Shown here piece by piece: positions 1 through 32,647 of a stretch of 41,020 nucleotides of DNA. Position numbers and translations under genes: made by a program. Position 1 is the first letter of the stretch. Every line of letters begins with the position of its first letter. The stretch covers positions 1 through 41,020 of the IMG/VR virus record IMGVR_UViG_3300028874_000023; one strand, given 5' to 3'. The notes under the pieces were generated by a model. That model was not told the origin of the DNA. It made no database searches and was given only the letters and a program-made list of their open reading frames with translations. The stretch comes from a virus.

Positions 1-2969
1 GAATGCGCATCGGTACCAACGCTTGACAGCGCGGCTTGCGTCATGTTTCCAGGCTGCGCAGTCGAAGCTATCATACCGGCTGCCGACATACCGGGGGCAA
101 GAGCGGTAAGATGCGCACCTGTTGACTCTGAGTAAAAGCCGAACTGTCTGCCTGCGGCATCTGCCCTGCCGTCGTTTTCAAGCATCATAGCGGCTTGAGC
201 AGGCGACGGTAACAGCCGCGAACTGAAGGAAGTGCCGCCCATCGTTAAGGCAGGAAGCTGACGAGCGTAGGTTGCAGTAGACTGGTATTCTATGCCAGCC
301 TCTTGCGTTAAGAAACCCTGACGGGTTCGCGCTTCGTTTTCAAGCTGCTCCGGAGTTAACGTGCCGCCCTGCTGCGCCTTAAGACGAGCTTCATTATTAT
401 CGTATTCCGAGGATTCTGAACGTATCACCCCAAGCATTCGAGATAGAGCATCTTGTTGTGATCCCGGTTCAGCGAACCCCATAGAATAGCGTTGAAGTTC
501 GCCTGCCGAAGTTATGGCAGAAACTCCTAAGCCGACCACCGAAGGTGTATAGTTGGTTTCAGATGCGTAGAGTCCTTTTATTTCTAGTTCAGACTTCGCA
601 ATATCAGAAGTAATCGCGGCCCTTGCCATCGGGTCTATCACACCCGGCAAACGCTGGCGTTCGTCGGCTATCCTTGTGTTAAGAGCCGCAATCCCGCCGG
701 ATACATCCATTTGAAACTCATAACCGCTACCGCTGGTCATTAAAGCCGCTTGACCTGATGCCATATACTGCGACGCTTGTGAGCCTGTAAGGCTTTGTAT
801 CGCGTTTATGGTCGTGACTGCGGCAGTGTTTCCAATTACCGCTAATTGCCTTTGGCTGTCTGCTAGTTGCCGTTGCTCTATAGTCAGATCGGCAGTTGAT
901 TGAGACGTATCCTGCGTTTGCTTTGTCAATTCAGCGATAGAGTTTTTAAGACTGTTGGCAACCGCGTCGAATGCTGCTGCATATTCGGAAGGGCCGCCTG
1001 TCTGTAGCGTAACGCCTAAACTTGATTCAGCTTGAGCGATAGGTACACTTAACGACTGTAGATTTTGCTGATAGCCTAATTCTTTGTACTGGTACGCTTG
1101 CTCCGCCTTTTGCTGTGATAACTGAGAAGCCTCACCGCGTAACCTTGCCGCCAGTTCGGGGTTAGCTAAAGGGTTAGCGGCATTTTCGTCTAACGCGCCT
1201 ATTTGACCTCTATAACTACCAAATAGCGAATCTAGGTTGATGTCACCTATCTTAGCCCCGCCGAGCAGTTGCGTGGTTATTGACGCTTGCGCACCTGCGC
1301 GAGTAGATTCAAAGACGGCATTAGACTGAATTACGGTGTTTTGAAATGCGCTTTGCATCACCGTAGCTGCTGACGCTTCGTGGGATGCGCTCTCAGCCTC
1401 TAATTGGTTTATCGTCGTTGTCAGGGCACGCTGTTGGTCTGGGGCGCTGGTTGCCGCAAGAGCATCACGCAATTGGCCTATACGCTGAGTATAGGCACCT
1501 GCGGCCTGTCGCTCTTGTCCAGCAGCAAGACCGCTTATGTGCGATATTTCACCCGCTCCTGCACCGGATGCGGCTGCTATACTTAACTGCGCACCGTATA
1601 TGGCAGAGCCGGACGAATACATTAACTCATTCGCACGCTCATCCTCTATGCCTGCGTAACGTGTCGGCAACGATGCGCCGAAAGCGCCTGAACCGCCGCG
1701 AGACTGAGCTATACCTGATAATCTCTGCGCCGACTGGAAATCCCCCTGAGTGAGTGCGATTAAAGCAGCGTTTTGGTATCCTAAAGGCGTCCCTCCTGAG
1801 TTTCTACCAGCTATATCTTGAGACTGCTCATAAAATAGAGGAGAAGAGCCCAAAAAATCGGACGCTGCTTTTATAGCTTGAGGGCCGCCGAACGCCCCGA
1901 GAGTTTCCTGAGCGTGATAGGCCAAAGTCGAATAGCCCTGCGAATCAACCTTTGTGTACCTGGCCGCTTCCCCTGCCGCTTCAGAAAACTCCTTGATCGC
2001 ATTTTTAGCCCCGTTTAACGCTTCGGCGAACTCTTTGCCTTCATTCTGTACGTTCCCGCCGAATCCTGCGTTTAACGCCTGCCCGATCTTTTCAGGATCA
2101 AACTCATGCCCGCCCTGGTAGGTATCTATTGCGCTTTTAGCCGTCTCGCCTAACGACATGCCTATAGCGGTTCCGGCTATAGCTCCGGGTATAGCAGCCG
2201 CGCCAGCTGATGCACCGCCCCCTAGTATAAAACCGATAGTGCCGCCAGCGGCGCCTAAAGCGGTAGGGATAGCTGAAGTCCACGATTGAGCTTCAGCCTG
2301 CTCCGGCAGGTATGCTTCACCCGCTAATTCGGGATGCCATGCTCGTTCAAGGTTTCCTGCACCATTCGAGGCGACCATACCGCCTATCAGGAGCTTCTGA
2401 GACAACCTTATATTGCCTGACTGGGATCCAACTCCGCCAGACATAGAGCCGAAGGCTCCTTCAATTATTGGCAACTCATCCATAGAGCCTACAGGTGAAC
2501 CGCCTTCATCCATAGGCATGGTTTCGCCCCATATAGGCGTAGTCAACGCTCCATTTTGACGAACTACTATATCATTTCGGTTATATCCACCACTAGGGAC
2601 TGGGAGGTCAAGCAGAGAAGCAGGCCCAGGGTTGCCCGGTTGCGTTTGCGCTGCTCTTTCGGCATCTAATCGAGCCTGAAAAGCAGTATCAGATAACGCC
2701 GAAGCAATAGCATCGTCAAGCCCTGCCGAAAACTTAGCCGTACCGAACGATCGGCTATTGTTGTTGACGTATTGCTGGGTTACCTCTTGTTCAATCTGCC
2801 TGCGAAGCAAGTCTTCATTGATTGCCCCGGGCCCCATTGAAAAGTTCTGATCGGACGAGGTAGACTGTAACGAAGGCGGTAATTGCGCGTCAGCAGTTGC
2901 CTGCGCGTTAATCTGCGCTTGTGCAGGGGATGCGTTGATATTTACTTCGTTCCCGAATATATCTGACAT
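1..2969 (-). CDS. tape measure protein, C-terminus cut by window edge
   Basis: An open frame runs without a stop from ATG 2969 to the window edge, at least 989 codons. It is rich in Ala, Gln and Ser, with long Gln/Ala helical stretches (around residues 640-720). A Gly/Ala-rich hydrophobic segment around residues 230-265 resembles the membrane-active segment of tape measure proteins. These proteins span the tail lumen, set tail length and help DNA cross the envelope. Position supports the call: it is the largest late gene and comes after the tail tube and a frameshifted chaperone G/GT, the usual siphovirus order. The ribosome site is AAGGTAG before ATG. Unusually, about 740 bases of opposite-strand genes separate it from the chaperone. 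No lytic domain is evident in the visible part. Confidence 0.8.
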   Translation of the reverse strand, partial: MSDIFGNEVNINASPAQAQINAQATADAQLPPSLQSTSSDQNFSMGPGAINEDLLRRQIEQEVTQQYVNNNSRSFGTAKFSAGLDDAIASALSDTAFQARLDAERAAQTQPGNPGPASLLDLPVPSGGYNRNDIVVRQNGALTTPIWGETMPMDEGGSPVGSMDELPIIEGAFGSMSGGVGSQSGNIRLSQKLLIGGMVASNGAGNLERAWHPELAGEAYLPEQAEAQSWTSAIPTALGAAGGTIGFILGGGASAGAAAIPGAIAGTAIGMSLGETAKSAIDTYQGGHEFDPEKIGQALNAGFGGNVQNEGKEFAEALNGAKNAIKEFSEAAGEAARYTKVDSQGYSTLAYHAQETLGAFGGPQAIKAASDFLGSSPLFYEQSQDIAGRNSGGTPLGYQNAALIALTQGDFQSAQRLSGIAQSRGGSGAFGASLPTRYAGIEDERANELMYSSGSAIYGAQLSIAAASGAGAGEISHISGLAAGQERQAAGAYTQRIGQLRDALAATSAPDQQRALTTTINQLEAESASHEASAATVMQSAFQNTVIQSNAVFESTRAGAQASITTQLLGGAKIGDINLDSLFGSYRGQIGALDENAANPLANPELAARLRGEASQLSQQKAEQAYQYKELGYQQNLQSLSVPIAQAESSLGVTLQTGGPSEYAAAFDAVANSLKNSIAELTKQTQDTSQSTADLTIEQRQLADSQRQLAVIGNTAAVTTINAIQSLTGSQASQYMASGQAALMTSGSGYEFQMDVSGGIAALNTRIADERQRLPGVIDPMARAAITSDIAKSELEIKGLYASETNYTPSVVGLGVSAITSAGELQRYSMGFAEPGSQQDALSRMLGVIRSESSEYDNNEARLKAQQGGTLTPEQLENEARTRQGFLTQEAGIEYQSTATYARQLPALTMGGTSFSSRLLPSPAQAAMMLENDGRADAAGRQFGFYSESTGAHLTALAPGMSAAGMIASTAQPGNMTQAALSSVGTDAH
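2935..2963 (+). promoter_or_regulatory. candidate promoter of the plus-strand membrane cassette
   Basis: TTGATA (2935-2940), a 17-base spacer, then TATATC (2958-2963), lying inside the start of the tape measure gene on the other strand. Predicted transcription starts very close to the AGGAG ribosome site at 2970-2974, so the leader would be only about 12 bases. The -10 matches 4 of 6 consensus bases, so this is a moderate prediction. Confidence 0.4.
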
Positions 2970-2981
2970 AGGAGCTACCTT

Positions 2982-3272
2982 GTGAAAATCGTTATCGCAC
3001 TTTTAGTCGGTGCTTTATTGGCGTTCGGTTTATATTTTGGATATGCAAAATACGAACATGACCAAATCATTCAAACAGCTATTAACTATAGCTGTGTAGA
3101 CAAGAATGATTGTGAGTTACTAAAAGATTGCCCAATAAAAAAAACCGTAATAATCCGAGAAGGTAATACTGCTCAAGTGATTTTTTACGATACAATTAAT
3201 TATATTCATTGTCGGATAACTATGGCAAAATCGGACAACGGAAAATGGGTAGTTTTGAATGATAGTGATTAA
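2982..3272 (+). CDS. small membrane-anchored, cysteine-containing protein (moron gene 1)
   Basis: A 96-residue protein with a GTG start; AGGAG at 2970-2974 sits seven bases upstream. Residues 3-22 form a hydrophobic signal-anchor (KIVIALLVGALLAFGLYFGY). The rest is polar with four cysteines (CVDKNDCELLKDC plus one later), suggesting a disulphide-stabilised extracytoplasmic domain. It opens a three-gene plus-strand cassette inserted in the minus-strand tail operon and overlaps the next gene by 14 bases. The cassette is visibly AT-richer than the flanking tail genes. I do not recognise the family. By analogy with morons, superinfection exclusion or envelope modification is possible, but that is inference only. 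Confidence 0.75.
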   Translation: MKIVIALLVGALLAFGLYFGYAKYEHDQIIQTAINYSCVDKNDCELLKDCPIKKTVIIREGNTAQVIFYDTINYIHCRITMAKSDNGKWVVLNDSD

Positions 3273-3576
3273 ATGCGCCTATTGCGGCACTGAAATCGAA
3301 TACATAAAGAACGCGACCCCAGATATGAAGGCTTGCGGTGCTTGCTATGATATACTCACAAGCAATTGGCCTAACGAAGCTAAAAAAACAGCAATAGCAT
3401 CCCGAATTAATACCGTCCAGCTATTTGAAACTCGAAGGCAGAATGACAAACTTTACAATAAAGCCTTCCTTCGTGAGTTTACAGAGATGATATTAATAAC
3501 TCTCCTTGTTCTTGGCGGCATAGCGCTTATTATATGGCTAATTTATATAGCCTATCATAATTTCTACTACGGATAA
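3259..3576 (+). CDS. zinc-ribbon protein with C-terminal membrane helix (moron gene 2)
   Basis: A 105-residue protein starting inside the end of the previous gene. The N-terminus has two CxxC-like knuckles (CAYCG at about residues 6-10, CGACYD at about 26-31), a small zinc ribbon. A polar helical middle is followed by a strong hydrophobic helix at about residues 77-100 (ILITLLVLGGIALIIWLIYI). A cytoplasmic zinc-binding head anchored in the inner membrane is the simplest reading. It is translationally coupled to the preceding gene. Function is unknown; membrane-anchored sensors with this layout occur in exclusion and stress systems, but nothing here proves that role. Confidence 0.72.
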   Translation: MIVIKCAYCGTEIEYIKNATPDMKACGACYDILTSNWPNEAKKTAIASRINTVQLFETRRQNDKLYNKAFLREFTEMILITLLVLGGIALIIWLIYIAYHNFYYG

Positions 3577-3580
3577 GCCT

Positions 3581-3712
3581 ATGCAATTAGCCAGTGTGTT
3601 AGCCGCCTTTTGGTTTCTAGTCTTTGAGCTTACGTTTGATGCCCTGCGCTGGATATGGCAAAGGCTACGACTCTATTACCGCGAGTTCAGAGATAATCGC
3701 TGGTATCACTAA
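3581..3712 (+). CDS. 43-residue membrane protein (moron gene 3)
   Basis: ATG 3581, four bases after the previous stop, gives a 43-residue protein. It has one hydrophobic helix (about residues 3-20, LASVLAAFWFLVFELTF) followed by an aromatic and arginine-rich tail (RWIWQRLRLYYREF). The layout is that of a small inner-membrane protein with a positive, interfacial cytoplasmic tail. No clear separate ribosome site is seen, so coupling to gene 2 is likely. Its last four bases overlap the end of the frameshifted chaperone GT on the other strand. Family unknown. Confidence 0.55.
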   Translation: MQLASVLAAFWFLVFELTFDALRWIWQRLRLYYREFRDNRWYH

Positions 3713-4316
3713 GTATATTTCAAAGCCGCACAGCCCCAGCATGGGGCTGTGCGCAGATATAACGCCTCGATTACATCGGTATCATACGGCATTGACAGCA
3801 CCCTATCCCAGTCGCCTGATGTAGACGCCTTCAACCATAACGCAAAGCCACGGCCTGCGGCCGCCGGAAAACCGCCGCACGACTCGTAATAAGCGTTTAG
3901 GCAGGCGTCGGCACGTTTTTTAGTGATTCAATATCTTCTTCGGTGAGTTGTGGCCCGGTCTGTATCTGGTTGCCTGCGCTAACCAGCACGGCGGCAGGTA
4001 GTCCGGCCAATACGCCAACGCTAAGGGGAAGGCCCGGAGCATCCGGAGAGTAGTATGCCCCGCTCTCGAAAGTTGATTCAAGTAGAGCGAGGGATCGTGT
4101 AACTGAGATTGCAAGCTGGTCGCCAAGCCCTTGAGCGTTGTAAACATTCGAGGCGTTCATGATGCGCCCTAACTCCTGGGCCGCGTAACCGTCAAACGGC
4201 TTGACGTTAAACTCCCATTTGTGTATCGCATCCGGCTTGATGTCTGCGATATTTTCGTTCTTCAGAATGACAAATTGCCCCTTAATGGCGACAGCGTTAA
4301 CTATGATCGGGTTCAT
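3709..4316 (-). CDS. tail assembly chaperone GT (frameshift product)
   Basis: This is the -1 frameshift extension of the chaperone starting at ATG 4316. The in-phase heptamer A AAA AAC (3921-3915) lets both tRNAs slip back one base. Translation then continues from C3915 for 68 more codons to TAG at 3711-3709, giving 202 residues instead of 139. The extension is stop-free and Cys/Trp/Tyr-containing, and fills the whole gap before the cassette. In lambda-like and many other siphophages, G and GT load onto the tape measure and recruit tube subunits, and the G:GT ratio is set by this slip. Position between tail tube and tape measure fits exactly. Confidence 0.82.
3728..3752. terminator. strong hairpin downstream of the membrane cassette
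   Basis: A 10-bp perfect stem (GCACAGCCCC / GGGGCTGTGC) with a 5-base loop lies 15 bases after the third cassette gene, inside the coding end of chaperone GT. No clear U-run follows on either strand. It may stop or slow cassette transcripts, or reflect GT codons only. Confidence 0.4.
3897..4316 (-). CDS. tail assembly chaperone G (zero-frame product)
   Basis: A 139-residue protein from ATG 4316, chosen because AGGAGA lies just upstream; an upstream in-frame start would run back into the tail tube gene. It is an acidic, alpha/beta-looking protein with an Ala/Leu-rich C-terminal part and ends 6 codons past the slippery heptamer. In the family, the short product binds the tape measure protein during tail assembly and is not kept in the virion. 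It follows the tail tube gene by 23 bases and belongs to the same operon. Sequence alone would give only a weak call; gene order plus the frameshift site make it firm. Confidence 0.8.
   Translation of the reverse strand: MNPIIVNAVAIKGQFVILKNENIADIKPDAIHKWEFNVKPFDGYAAQELGRIMNASNVYNAQGLGDQLAISVTRSLALLESTFESGAYYSPDAPGLPLSVGVLAGLPAAVLVSAGNQIQTGPQLTEEDIESLKNVPTPA
3915..3921 (-). promoter_or_regulatory. -1 programmed frameshift site A AAA AAC
   Basis: The heptamer lies in phase with the chaperone frame (codons AAA at 3920-3918 and AAC at 3917-3915), 6 codons before the zero-frame stop. The -1 frame is open for 68 codons downstream. This is the canonical X XXY YYZ arrangement used for G/GT. Confidence 0.85.
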
Positions 4317-4339: not shown

Positions 4340-5308
4340 TTAAGCGTAAGTGCCGTACGTCGCGGCTATCGGCCATGTCATGCTATTTGCGCTGCCGAAT
4401 ATGGTATACGAGCCATTAATCTTGTTGATCTGAGCAGGCATAACCGCAGTCGCATCCGCGTTGTACGAAATACTTAACGCAATTGTTAGCATCTCGCTTC
4501 TTGCCGGGTCTGCGATGATAATGTTGAATCCAGTTGTGCCATTCGTTTGAGGTATCGGGTTTGTAGCCCCGATGTTTTGCACCAGGTCAAGCCGACCTGC
4601 GATAACCCCCCCTGCTGCACCTGCTGCTATTCCCGCAGCCGCTAAAGTGCTTGACGTATTTGAAGCGTCAATAGGGATTAGCTGGTTCTGAATCATCAGA
4701 TTGAACGACGAAATATTGTCATAAGTGGTCGGGGAGCCTGCACCGTTCGTGAACCGCGTCTCCTGAAACGATGATATATTCAGTCCCTGAGTACCGCTTG
4801 TTGACGGGAGCGATGAAGCAGCGGCGCTAGAAACATTCGACGGGTCAAACACCATGCCCTGAAGCTCGTAACCTAGTATGCTTCCGCTACCACCCATGCT
4901 GAACTGACCGGTAATGCCAAACGAGGCAAGCCATATCCCTGCTAAACAAAATGCCGTATCCCCAGCGGATCGCAGTATAGTAGCCCACCAGGGCGTCAAG
5001 CTAGGACTAGTCAAACTGGTTGAACGCGGCCCGAAGCCGTTCGCTATCATGTACTGAAAGTTCCGGTCAATCTGCACCGGACCGCGAAGCCGTAAATCAC
5101 CTTGCGCCTGCCCTAAGGCGCGGTTATGCGCAACCTGGCTTGCATCAACCAACTGCGGGTATGCAGGAGCAAAGCCCTTTCGGTGCGTAATGCTCGACGT
5201 AGGCGGGTTAAATACCGTAGACGGTGAGCCGCCATTATCAAGCTGCAGCAGTGCGTAACCATCCATACCAGGGCGACCGACGCCGGATGTAAAATAAGGA
5301 GTTGACAT
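4340..5308 (-). CDS. major tail tube protein
   Basis: A 322-residue protein starting MSTPYFTSGVGRPG, with AAGGAT 8 bases upstream. It is rich in Ser, Thr, Gly and beta-prone segments, like siphovirus tube proteins, which stack as hexameric rings around the tape measure. It lies between the tail terminator-like gene and the chaperone G/GT, where the major tail protein normally sits. No sheath gene is present, so the tail is non-contractile. An Ala/Gly-rich stretch around residues 220-240 (LAAAGIAAGAAGGVIAG) is unusual for a tube subunit and may be an inserted loop. The call rests mainly on order, length and composition. Confidence 0.68.
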   Translation of the reverse strand: MSTPYFTSGVGRPGMDGYALLQLDNGGSPSTVFNPPTSSITHRKGFAPAYPQLVDASQVAHNRALGQAQGDLRLRGPVQIDRNFQYMIANGFGPRSTSLTSPSLTPWWATILRSAGDTAFCLAGIWLASFGITGQFSMGGSGSILGYELQGMVFDPSNVSSAAASSLPSTSGTQGLNISSFQETRFTNGAGSPTTYDNISSFNLMIQNQLIPIDASNTSSTLAAAGIAAGAAGGVIAGRLDLVQNIGATNPIPQTNGTTGFNIIIADPARSEMLTIALSISYNADATAVMPAQINKINGSYTIFGSANSMTWPIAATYGTYA

Positions 5309-5940: not shown

Positions 5941-6461
5941 TACGATACGCTCACGAGTATTTCTTCGGTAGGTATGCCTGCGCGAGAGGCTATAAACTCT
6001 GCGACTTTGTCGGCTATATCCTGCGCGTCACCAGAAGTTAAATCCATGTAGATTCTAGGCGGTACATGCCGAAATATGCCGTCTGGAGCACGACCGCTAA
6101 AACCTTCCTGCAACTTTTCAGCATAAGGTATATTTGTGCCTATCAGAGCAGAATTAGACGTTATCTCGCCACTTTGACCTATAGAAGCAGCCAGCGCACC
6201 GGTCATATGCAAAAGTTCGGTCGAATACCCGTGTTCACTTTTCCACTGAACCCATCGCGGGTCGTTGTCTGCCCACGGTGAGCCTATTGAAACGCCTTGA
6301 GTTTGGAACGCCTCTTGTTCCTGTTGCTGCAATGCAGGCGCTACGACTTCCTCAAGTACCGGAGTCAAATCACCCAGTTCTTCTAACAGCGCTGTTAGAT
6401 CGGATGCGTTAAGCGCTCCCGGATTAACCAGGCTGATTGACAACGTTATTGTTTGCGACAT
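5940..6461 (-). CDS. Mu gpG-like virion morphogenesis (tail completion) protein
   Basis: A 173-residue protein with features of the phage virion morphogenesis family (Mu gpG, P2 gpS): an early W-rich segment (PWADNDPRWVQWK), the L.MTGALAASIG block, IGTNIPYAEKLQEG, then a PRIYMDL segment and a C-terminal helix. Family members finish the tail or the head-tail joint. It overlaps the upstream zinc-ribbon gene by 38 bases and abuts the terminator-like gene. N-terminal residues 20-60 are a long acidic/Gln-rich helix, somewhat longer than usual. Confidence 0.72.
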   Translation of the reverse strand: MSQTITLSISLVNPGALNASDLTALLEELGDLTPVLEEVVAPALQQQEQEAFQTQGVSIGSPWADNDPRWVQWKSEHGYSTELLHMTGALAASIGQSGEITSNSALIGTNIPYAEKLQEGFSGRAPDGIFRHVPPRIYMDLTSGDAQDIADKVAEFIASRAGIPTEEILVSVS

Positions 6462-6654
6462 CCTGGCTCTCTAATGTATGCAACGCCGATTCGACCTGCT
6501 GTATTGCGACCTGCATTAGATTCTGCGCCTGTGTACTCTCTGTCGTTTCAGTTGATGCCGATGCAGGTATCGTTACTTTTGCGTGGCATCTGCCACAAAA
6601 ACCGGTAGCTGGCGGCTCCTGAAACCGTTGGCCGCACACTGGGCATATATACAT
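6424..6654 (-). CDS. small zinc-ribbon protein in the connector cluster
   Basis: A 76-residue protein opening with two knuckles, CPVCG (residues 4-8) and CGRCH (20-24), which would bind one zinc. A Ser/Thr-rich linker follows, then a Gln-rich helix. It overlaps the downstream tail-completion gene by 38 bases, a strong coupling sign. Zinc-ribbon proteins of this size occur among head-tail joining genes but their role is not settled. A wrong-frame reading is unlikely, because both cysteine pairs are well spaced and the upstream gene stops 12 bases before it. Confidence 0.62.
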   Translation of the reverse strand: MYICPVCGQRFQEPPATGFCGRCHAKVTIPASASTETTESTQAQNLMQVAIQQVESALHTLESQDVANNNVVNQPG

Positions 6655-15385: not shown

Positions 15386-15413
15386 GTTTGTCAACATATT
15401 AATGTTGACAAAC
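15386..15413. promoter_or_regulatory. perfect 12-bp inverted repeat, candidate operator
   Basis: Arms GTTTGTCAACAT (15386-15397) and ATGTTGACAAAC (15402-15413) are exact inverse complements around a 4-base centre. The right arm contains the -35 of the rightward promoter, and the left arm faces the late promoter about 30 bases away. A dimeric regulator bound here would block the rightward promoter and could touch the late promoter. The sequence differs from the TATAAAC operators of the repressor switch. Confidence 0.7.
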
Positions 15414-26734: not shown

Positions 26735-26740
26735 CACAAA

Positions 26741-26757
26741 TATAAACAATGTTTATA
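26741..26757. promoter_or_regulatory. operator O2
   Basis: TATAAAC-AAT-GTTTATA, a perfect 17-bp palindrome, overlapping the stop codon of the Cro-like gene. Confidence 0.75.
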
Positions 26758-27025
26758 TTTTTTTGTGGTTTCGTTTTGGAAGTTCTAGTAGTCGTCTATT
26801 TGCGGTACGAGCAGTGCTGAAGTCTATGCCCCATTTTTCGGCAATTCTTTCAACCATGTCTATATTTTGAGTACCGATATGCTCAATTTGAGATAATCTT
26901 GCCTGCGTAATACCTAGAATTGCTGACGCATCTTTCTGGCTCCAGCCTCTATAACGCCGTAAGTCAGAAAGAGTAAAACAGGGTGATAAGCGCAAGGGGG
27001 ATTCGTCTTTATTAGATATTTCCAT
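26753..27025 (-). CDS. Cro-like helix-turn-helix regulator, predicted leaderless
   Basis: A 90-residue protein from ATG 27025 (MEISNKDESPLRLSPC). Residues 17-70 form an XRE helix-turn-helix (LSDLRRYRGWSQKDASAILGITQARLSQIEHIG), with a basic tail (NRRLLELPKRNHKKI). An upstream in-frame start at 27085 would lie beyond the promoter. The -10 hexamer ends only 6 bases before ATG 27025, so the mRNA should begin at or beside the start codon, like lambda cI from PRM. It is the first gene of the leftward early region and faces the repressor operon. A Cro or early-switch role is likely. Confidence 0.75.
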   Translation of the reverse strand: MEISNKDESPLRLSPCFTLSDLRRYRGWSQKDASAILGITQARLSQIEHIGTQNIDMVERIAEKWGIDFSTARTANRRLLELPKRNHKKI

Positions 27026-32020: not shown

Positions 32021-32530
32021 CTAGCATAGTACGAAGCACTCGTCAACGATGCCGGAGTAAACTTGCCACGGTTGCTGGCCGGGGCCGTATCCGCCATAAC
32101 TTTCGACCGTGTGACCATGCACGGTCAGCCATACATGCCCGGCGGTATCCCCGTGAGTACCTTCGTGCTTGAAGGCTATGCGTATATGATCGTCACCGTC
32201 CCCGGTCGCTGAATAATCACCGGGTTTAAATCCCTTTGCCTTCACCCAATCGCATTGAGCAACCGATCCGTCAGGGAATCCTTGAGACACGATACACGCG
32301 GTAGCATATTCGAGCAATGCGCGGACGTACCCGGAACAATCGGGGCCTTGGTTCGACTGCTTTTCAAGGCTATACCAAGTCGGCGGGATGTGACCGAGAT
32401 TAGTGCATTTACCGCCCCATACGTACTCTAAGCCTGCACAAGCGGCCTCATATGCGGCAAACAAGCCTAGATCAATATTGATCGTCGTATACCCTGCAAG
32501 ATCGCCTTCAGTCTGCTTTTTGAGTCCCAT
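32021..32530 (-). CDS. NlpC/P60-like endolysin
   Basis: A 169-residue protein with the cysteine-peptidase pattern GPDCSGYVRALLEY (C65) and the later histidine segment GHVWLTVHGHTVESYGGYGP (H132). An N-terminal helix (LGLFAAYEAACAGLEYVWGG) is typical of NlpC/P60 and CHAP-like cell-wall peptidases. It would cut peptide links in peptidoglycan to release virions. There is no signal peptide, so it needs the holin-type proteins upstream in the same unit. No wall-binding domain is visible. Confidence 0.78.
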   Translation of the reverse strand: MGLKKQTEGDLAGYTTINIDLGLFAAYEAACAGLEYVWGGKCTNLGHIPPTWYSLEKQSNQGPDCSGYVRALLEYATACIVSQGFPDGSVAQCDWVKAKGFKPGDYSATGDGDDHIRIAFKHEGTHGDTAGHVWLTVHGHTVESYGGYGPGQQPWQVYSGIVDECFVLC

Positions 32531-32606: not shown

Positions 32607-32647
32607 CGCTCATACTTCATCATACGATGTATGATGAAGTATGAGCG
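32607..32647. repeat. perfect 19-bp inverted repeat with 3-base loop
   Basis: The arms at 32607-32625 and 32629-32647 are exact inverse complements (starting CGCTCATACTTC). The hairpin spans the stop codon of the small Zn protein, so its left part is coding in the minus strand. No U-run follows on either side. It would be a very stable RNA hairpin or a cruciform. Confidence 0.85.

What the first reader, a model, noticed from the sequence alone, without database searches (positions are those of the whole stretch)
2982..3712. Three-gene membrane moron placed backwards inside the tail operon
Three overlapping plus-strand genes encode a signal-anchored Cys-rich protein, a zinc-ribbon membrane protein and a 43-residue membrane protein. 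They lie between the chaperone and tape measure genes, both on the minus strand. They have their own ribosome site and a plausible promoter inside the tape measure gene, and are AT-richer than the surroundings. Autonomous, opposite-strand genes in a tail operon are the hallmark of morons, many of which exclude other phages or change the lysogen's surface. I recognise no family. This is my best candidate for an undescribed small system.
Basis: partly seen in the sequence, partly recalled or inferred. Interest (0 to 1): 0.72.

Follow-up and report, generated by a model that had tools for sequence, protein, structure and literature searches.

The report
Reverse three-gene membrane moron in prophage
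A temperate bacterial virus carries three small membrane-protein genes placed backwards in a tight slot of its tail-building genes, where related viruses have either nothing or a different backwards membrane gene; they most likely protect the infected bacterium against further viruses, but that has not been tested.

Summary
In a temperate, siphovirus-like phage record, three plus-strand ORFs (96, 105 and 43 aa; 2982-3712) fill the gap between the minus-strand tail chaperone and tape-measure (TMP) genes. ORFs 1 and 2 are coding beyond reasonable doubt; ORF 3 is probable. G+C is 38% against 49%.

New evidence supports a moron slot. Relative L032 (capsid 54% identical) has an unrelated two-helix membrane ORF in the same slot and reversed orientation, with a leaderless-type promoter. 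In L033 T and TMP abut. L065 has a reversed zinc-ribbon membrane gene just after TMP. HK97's exclusion moron gp15 sits in the same chaperone-TMP slot. A 12-bp hairpin follows the third stop.

No family or confident fold matches; only near-identical copies were found. Best reading: a lysogen-expressed moron whose membrane complex blocks DNA entry of other siphophages. Moron status about 0.85; exclusion is inferred, about 0.45.

The parts
2935..2963 (+). candidate promoter TTGATA-N17-TATATC, inside the first codons of the tape-measure gene
   Evidence: 9 of 12 consensus match; background about 1.6 per kb, so weak
2970..2974 (+). Shine-Dalgarno AGGAG, 7 nt before the GTG of m1
   Evidence: sequence
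2982..3272 (+). m1, 96 aa: N-terminal membrane anchor, then a four-cysteine extracytoplasmic domain (C38, C44, C50, C77)
   Evidence: model with N-terminal helix and four strands, pLDDT 75.6
3259..3576 (+). m2, 105 aa: N-terminal zinc-ribbon-like CxxC-x16-CxxC, linker helix, C-terminal membrane helix
   Evidence: helix 40-104 in the model, C-terminal part at pLDDT above 90; sub-threshold zinc-ribbon match
3581..3712 (+). m3, 43 aa: hydrophobic N-terminus, basic aromatic C-terminus; probable gene
   Evidence: ORF and position; weak by chance test; sub-threshold YlcG match E 0.0044
3727..3753 (.). perfect 12-bp hairpin 14 nt after the m3 stop, inside the 3' end of T; possible 3' end of the cassette
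   Evidence: T C-terminus diverges from relatives here; no U-run
3709..4316 (-). flank: tail chaperone G (3897-4316) and its -1 frameshift extension T (slip A_AAA_AAC at 3915-3921, stop 3709-3711)
1..2969 (-). flank: tape-measure gene, 989 aa in the window, 1043 aa complete in L001
   Evidence: homologue in L032 at 26%

Best explanation
The trio is a moron: a self-contained cassette inserted backwards between the frameshift-made tail chaperone (T) and the tape-measure gene of a temperate siphovirus-like phage. Shown: the anatomy, the coding nature of m1 and m2, the exact fit, the deviant composition, and alternative contents of the same slot in relatives. Inferred: it is transcribed from its own promoter in the lysogen, while the late genes are silent. 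m1 (anchor plus cysteine-rich extracytoplasmic domain), m2 (cytoplasmic zinc ribbon with membrane helix) and m3 (small membrane peptide) form an inner-membrane complex that blocks genome entry of other siphophages, probably by meeting the incoming tape-measure protein or its membrane channel, as is proposed for HK97 gp15 and Ltp. Late in lytic growth the opposing late transcript would run antisense through the cassette and damp it.
For: Coding and exact fit. Composition 38.3 against 49.4%. Temperate gene set. Same slot, same reversed orientation, unrelated two-helix membrane ORF in L032 with TAAAAT-N6-GTG, a leaderless-promoter spacing seen at none of the 12 called genes of L032. Empty T-TMP junction in L033. 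Reversed zinc-ribbon membrane gene abutting the TMP in L065, the only one of 28 gene starts with TANNNT at that spacing. HK97 gp15 lies between the -1-frameshift chaperone and the tape measure and is a DNA-injection-blocking membrane protein whose block is escaped by tail tube/tape-measure exchange (PMC10883804). Lysis-like genes lie elsewhere.
Against: No functional or expression data. No sequence similarity to any exclusion protein: gp15 compared directly, PADLOC, families. Promoter weak. Hairpin lacks a U-run. The slot comparison rests on two close lineages (L031/L032 and L033), and L033 ends 24 nt into its TMP-like ORF. The three proteins forming one complex is conjecture.
Confidence: 0.45

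Rival explanations
1. A moron, but for lysogenic conversion other than exclusion: the membrane proteins alter the envelope, stress response or signalling of the host to the lysogen's benefit.
For: Same anatomy evidence as the best explanation; morons with such roles are common (general knowledge); a zinc ribbon and a cysteine-rich domain suit sensing.
Against: Position next to the tape measure, shared with gp15 of HK97, is unexplained by it; no similarity to known conversion genes.
Confidence: 0.33
2. A late function: lysis timing (holin, antiholin or spanin-like proteins) or a virion or counter-defence role, expressed during lytic growth despite the orientation.
For: Small membrane proteins are typical of lysis cassettes; the genes lie in the late region.
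Against: On the strand opposite to the late genes; an NlpC/P60-like endolysin candidate (32021-32530), a coil-plus-membrane-helix ORF and an Rz-like ORF lie together at 32-34.4 kb in late orientation; m1 and m2 do not look like holins.
Confidence: 0.08
3. A regulatory antisense region: the plus-strand transcript and the hairpin keep T and TMP silent in the lysogen, and the ORFs are incidental.
For: The transcript would start inside TMP and the hairpin lies inside T.
Against: The gap itself carries no late gene to regulate; m1 and m2 are clearly coding.
Confidence: 0.04
4. Chance ORFs or a decaying insert without function.
For: No homologues outside near-identical contigs; m3 alone is within reach of chance.
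Against: 0 of 5000 shuffles match the cover; m1 and m2 with helices 0 of 3000 each, and their frames score far above the other five; zinc-ribbon spacing; ordered start signals.
Confidence: 0.04

Closest known systems
HK97 gp15 (superinfection-exclusion moron, Escherichia phage HK97)
   Same: Same slot, between the -1-frameshift chaperone and the tape measure, followed by a terminator-like hairpin; short protein with one N-terminal membrane helix.
   Different: One 62-aa gene, forward orientation; no sequence similarity to m1; no zinc ribbon, no cysteines.
Ltp (phage TP-J34) and Sie2009 (phage Tuc2009) exclusion proteins
   Same: Membrane-attached exclusion proteins of temperate siphophages that block DNA injection; the tape measure is the target of Ltp (PMC3952083, PMC10883804).
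   Different: Ltp is a lipoprotein with repeat domains; m1 shows no lipobox cysteine after its anchor (cysteines at 38, 44, 50, 77). Not compared by sequence search with Sie2009.
HK97 gp23 (reverse moron) and Tab of phage JBD26
   Same: gp23: a reversed moron in a tail operon. Tab: a late-operon moron expressed from the prophage that targets other phages' tape measure (PMC10884400).
   Different: Single genes at other sites; [quoted passage not shown]
L032 reversed ORF and L065 reversed zinc-ribbon gene (this lineage)
   Same: Reversed membrane genes at the tape measure; L065 combines zinc ribbon, membrane helix and extracytoplasmic domain in one protein.
   Different: No detectable sequence similarity; L065's gene lies after, not before, the tape measure.

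Membership tests
Phage moron | Inserted between genes that are adjacent in related phages | tested here: met
   L033: T stop 6988, TMP-like start about 16 nt on, no insert; L032 has a different insert. Caveat: L033 ends 24 nt into the TMP-like ORF.
Phage moron | Base composition unlike the surrounding genes | tested here: met
   38.3% against 49.4% G+C
Phage moron | Own promoter | tested here: inconclusive
   TTGATA-N17-TATATC, 9 of 12, background about 1.6 per kb
Phage moron | Own terminator | tested here: inconclusive
   12-bp hairpin after m3, no U-run
Phage moron | Expressed from the prophage | not testable with these tools
   No RNA data
HK97 gp15 family | Sequence similarity to gp15 | tested here: not met
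   No alignment at E 100 or below for m1
HK97 gp15 family | Position between frameshift chaperone and tape measure | tested here: met
HK97 gp15 family | Blocks DNA entry of siphophages | not testable with these tools
   Needs a phage challenge
Ltp-type exclusion lipoproteins | Lipoprotein signal with lipobox cysteine | tested here: not met
   m1 anchor has no cysteine at its end; first cysteine is C38
Lysis cassette (holin/spanin) | Lies with the endolysin in the late orientation | tested here: not met
   Endolysin candidate and lysis-like ORFs at 32-34.4 kb, minus strand; trio on the plus strand
Known anti-phage defence families (PADLOC) | Profile match | tested here: not met
   No hit at E 1 for m1, m2, m3

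The most novel reading that the evidence does not exclude
The junction between the frameshift chaperone and the tape-measure gene is a general docking slot for exclusion genes matched to the adjacent tape measure, so that a phage's entry machinery and the protein that recognises it travel as one block. The trio would be a three-part transmembrane version built from new protein families (extracytoplasmic sensor, zinc-ribbon effector, small membrane peptide).
Probability: 0.2. Interest if true: 0.75.

Novelty: new variant of a known kind. Interest (0 to 1): 0.5.

Why it matters
If right, the chaperone-tape-measure junction is a predictable place to look for phage-exclusion genes: the known exclusion moron gp15 of HK97 and two unrelated reversed membrane cassettes of an uncultured lineage occupy it. 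That gives a genome-mining rule, three undescribed proteins to test, and a possible reason for the position: linkage of an entry-blocking protein to the tape measure it may recognise.

Tried and rejected
No family hits for the trio above cut-off in Pfam, PHROGs, PADLOC or NCBIfam, nor in PDB sequences for m1. tblastn against phages and plasmids gave nothing for m1 or m2. IMG/VR scans with m1 and m2 found only the near-identical contig 3300030507_000047; such scans reach only close relatives.

Foldseek with the m1 model gave only weak cystatin-like or NTF2-like hits (best E 0.15) and nothing convincing in viral models: too weak to use. The m2 model is confident only in its helix and was not searched.

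The genome-contig scan with the portal alignment gave one distant Armatimonadota contig; its sequence ends before the tail junction. Most portal or capsid relatives at 35-50% have other, compact tails without a reversed gene at the TMP junction, so the slot comparison rests on L031/L032, L033 and, next door, L065.

The near-identical contig differs at one base, 4397, outside the trio, so no selection test was possible. Rfam: nothing. The genome search draws no relatives for a virus record. Literature searches for reverse morons, or zinc ribbon with superinfection exclusion, found no paper in the held library. The lysis, antisense and chance-ORF readings were considered and rated low.

Full report
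WHAT THE WINDOW IS. The window is a 41,020-base linear virus record of IMG/VR. Its late genes run on the minus strand from right to left: terminase small and large subunits, portal, protease, major capsid protein, connectors, tail tube (4340-5308), chaperone, tape measure (tube, chaperone and tape measure named by order, size and the frameshift, not by a family hit). A plus-strand block at 27.1-29.7 kb holds an HTH regulator and a serine recombinase, so the phage is temperate by gene content. Contig IMGVR 3300030507_000047 (L001) overlaps 15,308 bases with one difference, at 4397, and shows the complete tape measure of 1043 aa. No phage record is near its first 12 kb at the DNA level.

THE OBSERVATION. 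m1 (96 aa) has an N-terminal membrane anchor and four cysteines at 38, 44, 50 and 77. m2 (105 aa) has CxxC-x16-CxxC near the N-terminus and a C-terminal membrane helix. m3 (43 aa) has a hydrophobic N-terminus and a basic aromatic tail. m1 and m2 overlap by 14 nt; m3 starts 4 nt after the m2 stop. AGGAG stands 7 nt before the GTG of m1. In 5000 dinucleotide shuffles none reached the observed ORF cover. m1 and m2 are safe individually; m3 is less so (185 of 3000 by length, 23 of 3000 with its helix). The m1 and m2 frames are the only well-scoring frames by the phage's own codon usage. The cassette is 38.3% G+C against 49.4%.

THE SLOT. The chaperone is of the G/GT type. On the minus strand the zero-frame codons AAA AAC preceded by A (A_AAA_AAC, 3915-3921) allow a -1 slip into a frame that runs to 3709. 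The fused product aligns with the same construction in L032 (also A_AAA_AAC) and L033 (G_GGA_AAC). The T stop (3709-3711) overlaps the m3 stop (3710-3712), and the TMP start codon begins at 2969, with 12 nt between it and the m1 start. The cassette thus fills the T-TMP junction exactly. A perfect 12-bp hairpin (3727-3753) follows m3; distinct perfect stems of 9 bp or more number a dozen in the window against 0.75 expected, and the region folds with z -4.3. It lies where the T C-terminus stops resembling L032 and L033, as if the cassette's 3' end had replaced the last codons of T. It has no U-run, so calling it a terminator is inference.

RELATIVES. The closest relatives with tail genes are L031/L032 (capsid 54%, tube 32%, TMP 26%) and L033 (capsid 54%, tube 26%). 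In L032 the 298-nt T-TMP gap is crossed on the opposite strand by an ORF (6170-6634) with a charged coil and two strong membrane helices; its 3' part overlaps T. Its gap part is open in 93 of 5000 shuffles and never with such a helix. TAAAAT ends 6 nt before its GTG, the spacing of a leaderless promoter, which none of the 12 called genes of L032 shows. I saw no similarity to m1-m3. In L033 the T stop (6988) is followed about 16 nt later by a TMP-like ATG (MAEIDTIT...), so the slot is empty; the contig ends 24 nt on. A farther relative, L065 (capsid 49%), has on the opposite strand, abutting the 3' end of its TMP, a 216-aa protein with double zinc ribbon, membrane helix and extracytoplasmic domain, also with TAGAAT-N6-ATG, the only such start among 28 genes. 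More distant relatives have compact tail junctions without reversed genes. Reversed membrane genes at the tape measure thus recur in this lineage, with unrelated contents.

KNOWN SYSTEMS. In HK97 the moron gp15 (62 aa) lies between the -1-frameshift chaperone and the tape measure, followed by a putative terminator: the same slot, in forward orientation. [quoted passage not shown] Ltp of TP-J34 acts on the tape measure as well (PMC3952083), Tab targets tape measures at assembly (PMC10884400), and SNIPE associates with the lambda tape measure at injection (PMC13190303). No similarity of the trio to these was found where tested: gp15 against m1 directly; PADLOC, family, PDB and fold searches. The single-sequence model of m1 (pLDDT 75.6) shows a long N-terminal helix and a four-strand sheet, faintly cystatin-like. 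m3 has a sub-threshold match to YlcG, a small prophage protein family.

INTERPRETATION. That this is a moron is well supported (about 0.85). That it is expressed in the lysogen follows from orientation and start signals but is not shown; the promoter is a 9/12 match. That it excludes other siphophages at the membrane is the best single guess (about 0.45), resting on membrane design, slot identity with gp15, and the presence of lysis-like genes elsewhere. The main rival is another kind of lysogenic conversion (about 0.33).

VERDICT. Real, well placed, of undescribed protein families, in a kind of element already known. The fresh point is the slot: unrelated reversed membrane genes at the chaperone-tape-measure junction, a place shared with HK97's exclusion moron.

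Noticed in passing
window 3915-3921 (minus strand); L032 6112-6118; L033 6722-6728: Canonical -1 slippery heptamers (A_AAA_AAC, A_AAA_AAC, G_GGA_AAC) make the G/GT tail chaperone in three divergent relatives.
   Followed up: yes
L065 17579-18229 (minus strand): Reversed 216-aa double-zinc-ribbon membrane protein abutting the 3' end of the tape-measure gene, with TAGAAT 6 nt before its ATG (leaderless type).
   Followed up: partly
L032 6170-6634 (minus strand): Reversed two-helix membrane ORF in the T-TMP gap with TAAAAT 6 nt before its GTG; its 3' part overlaps the T frame antisense.
   Followed up: partly
window 6424-6654 (minus strand); L032 3221-3463: A small CxxC...CxxC protein sits in the connector module of both phages at the same place.
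   Followed up: no
window 32607-32647: Near-perfect palindrome with a 19-bp stem at the end of a small cysteine-rich ORF next to the endolysin candidate; likely terminator or regulatory site.
   Followed up: no
window 15386-15413 and 26738-26760: Perfect inverted repeats in non-coding or regulatory stretches upstream of the late genes and beside the HTH regulators; possible operators.
   Followed up: no
L049 11719-12903: A 394-aa gene, glycosyltransferase-like by eye (not tested), lies between capsid and tail genes of a relative: possibly another late-region moron.
   Followed up: no
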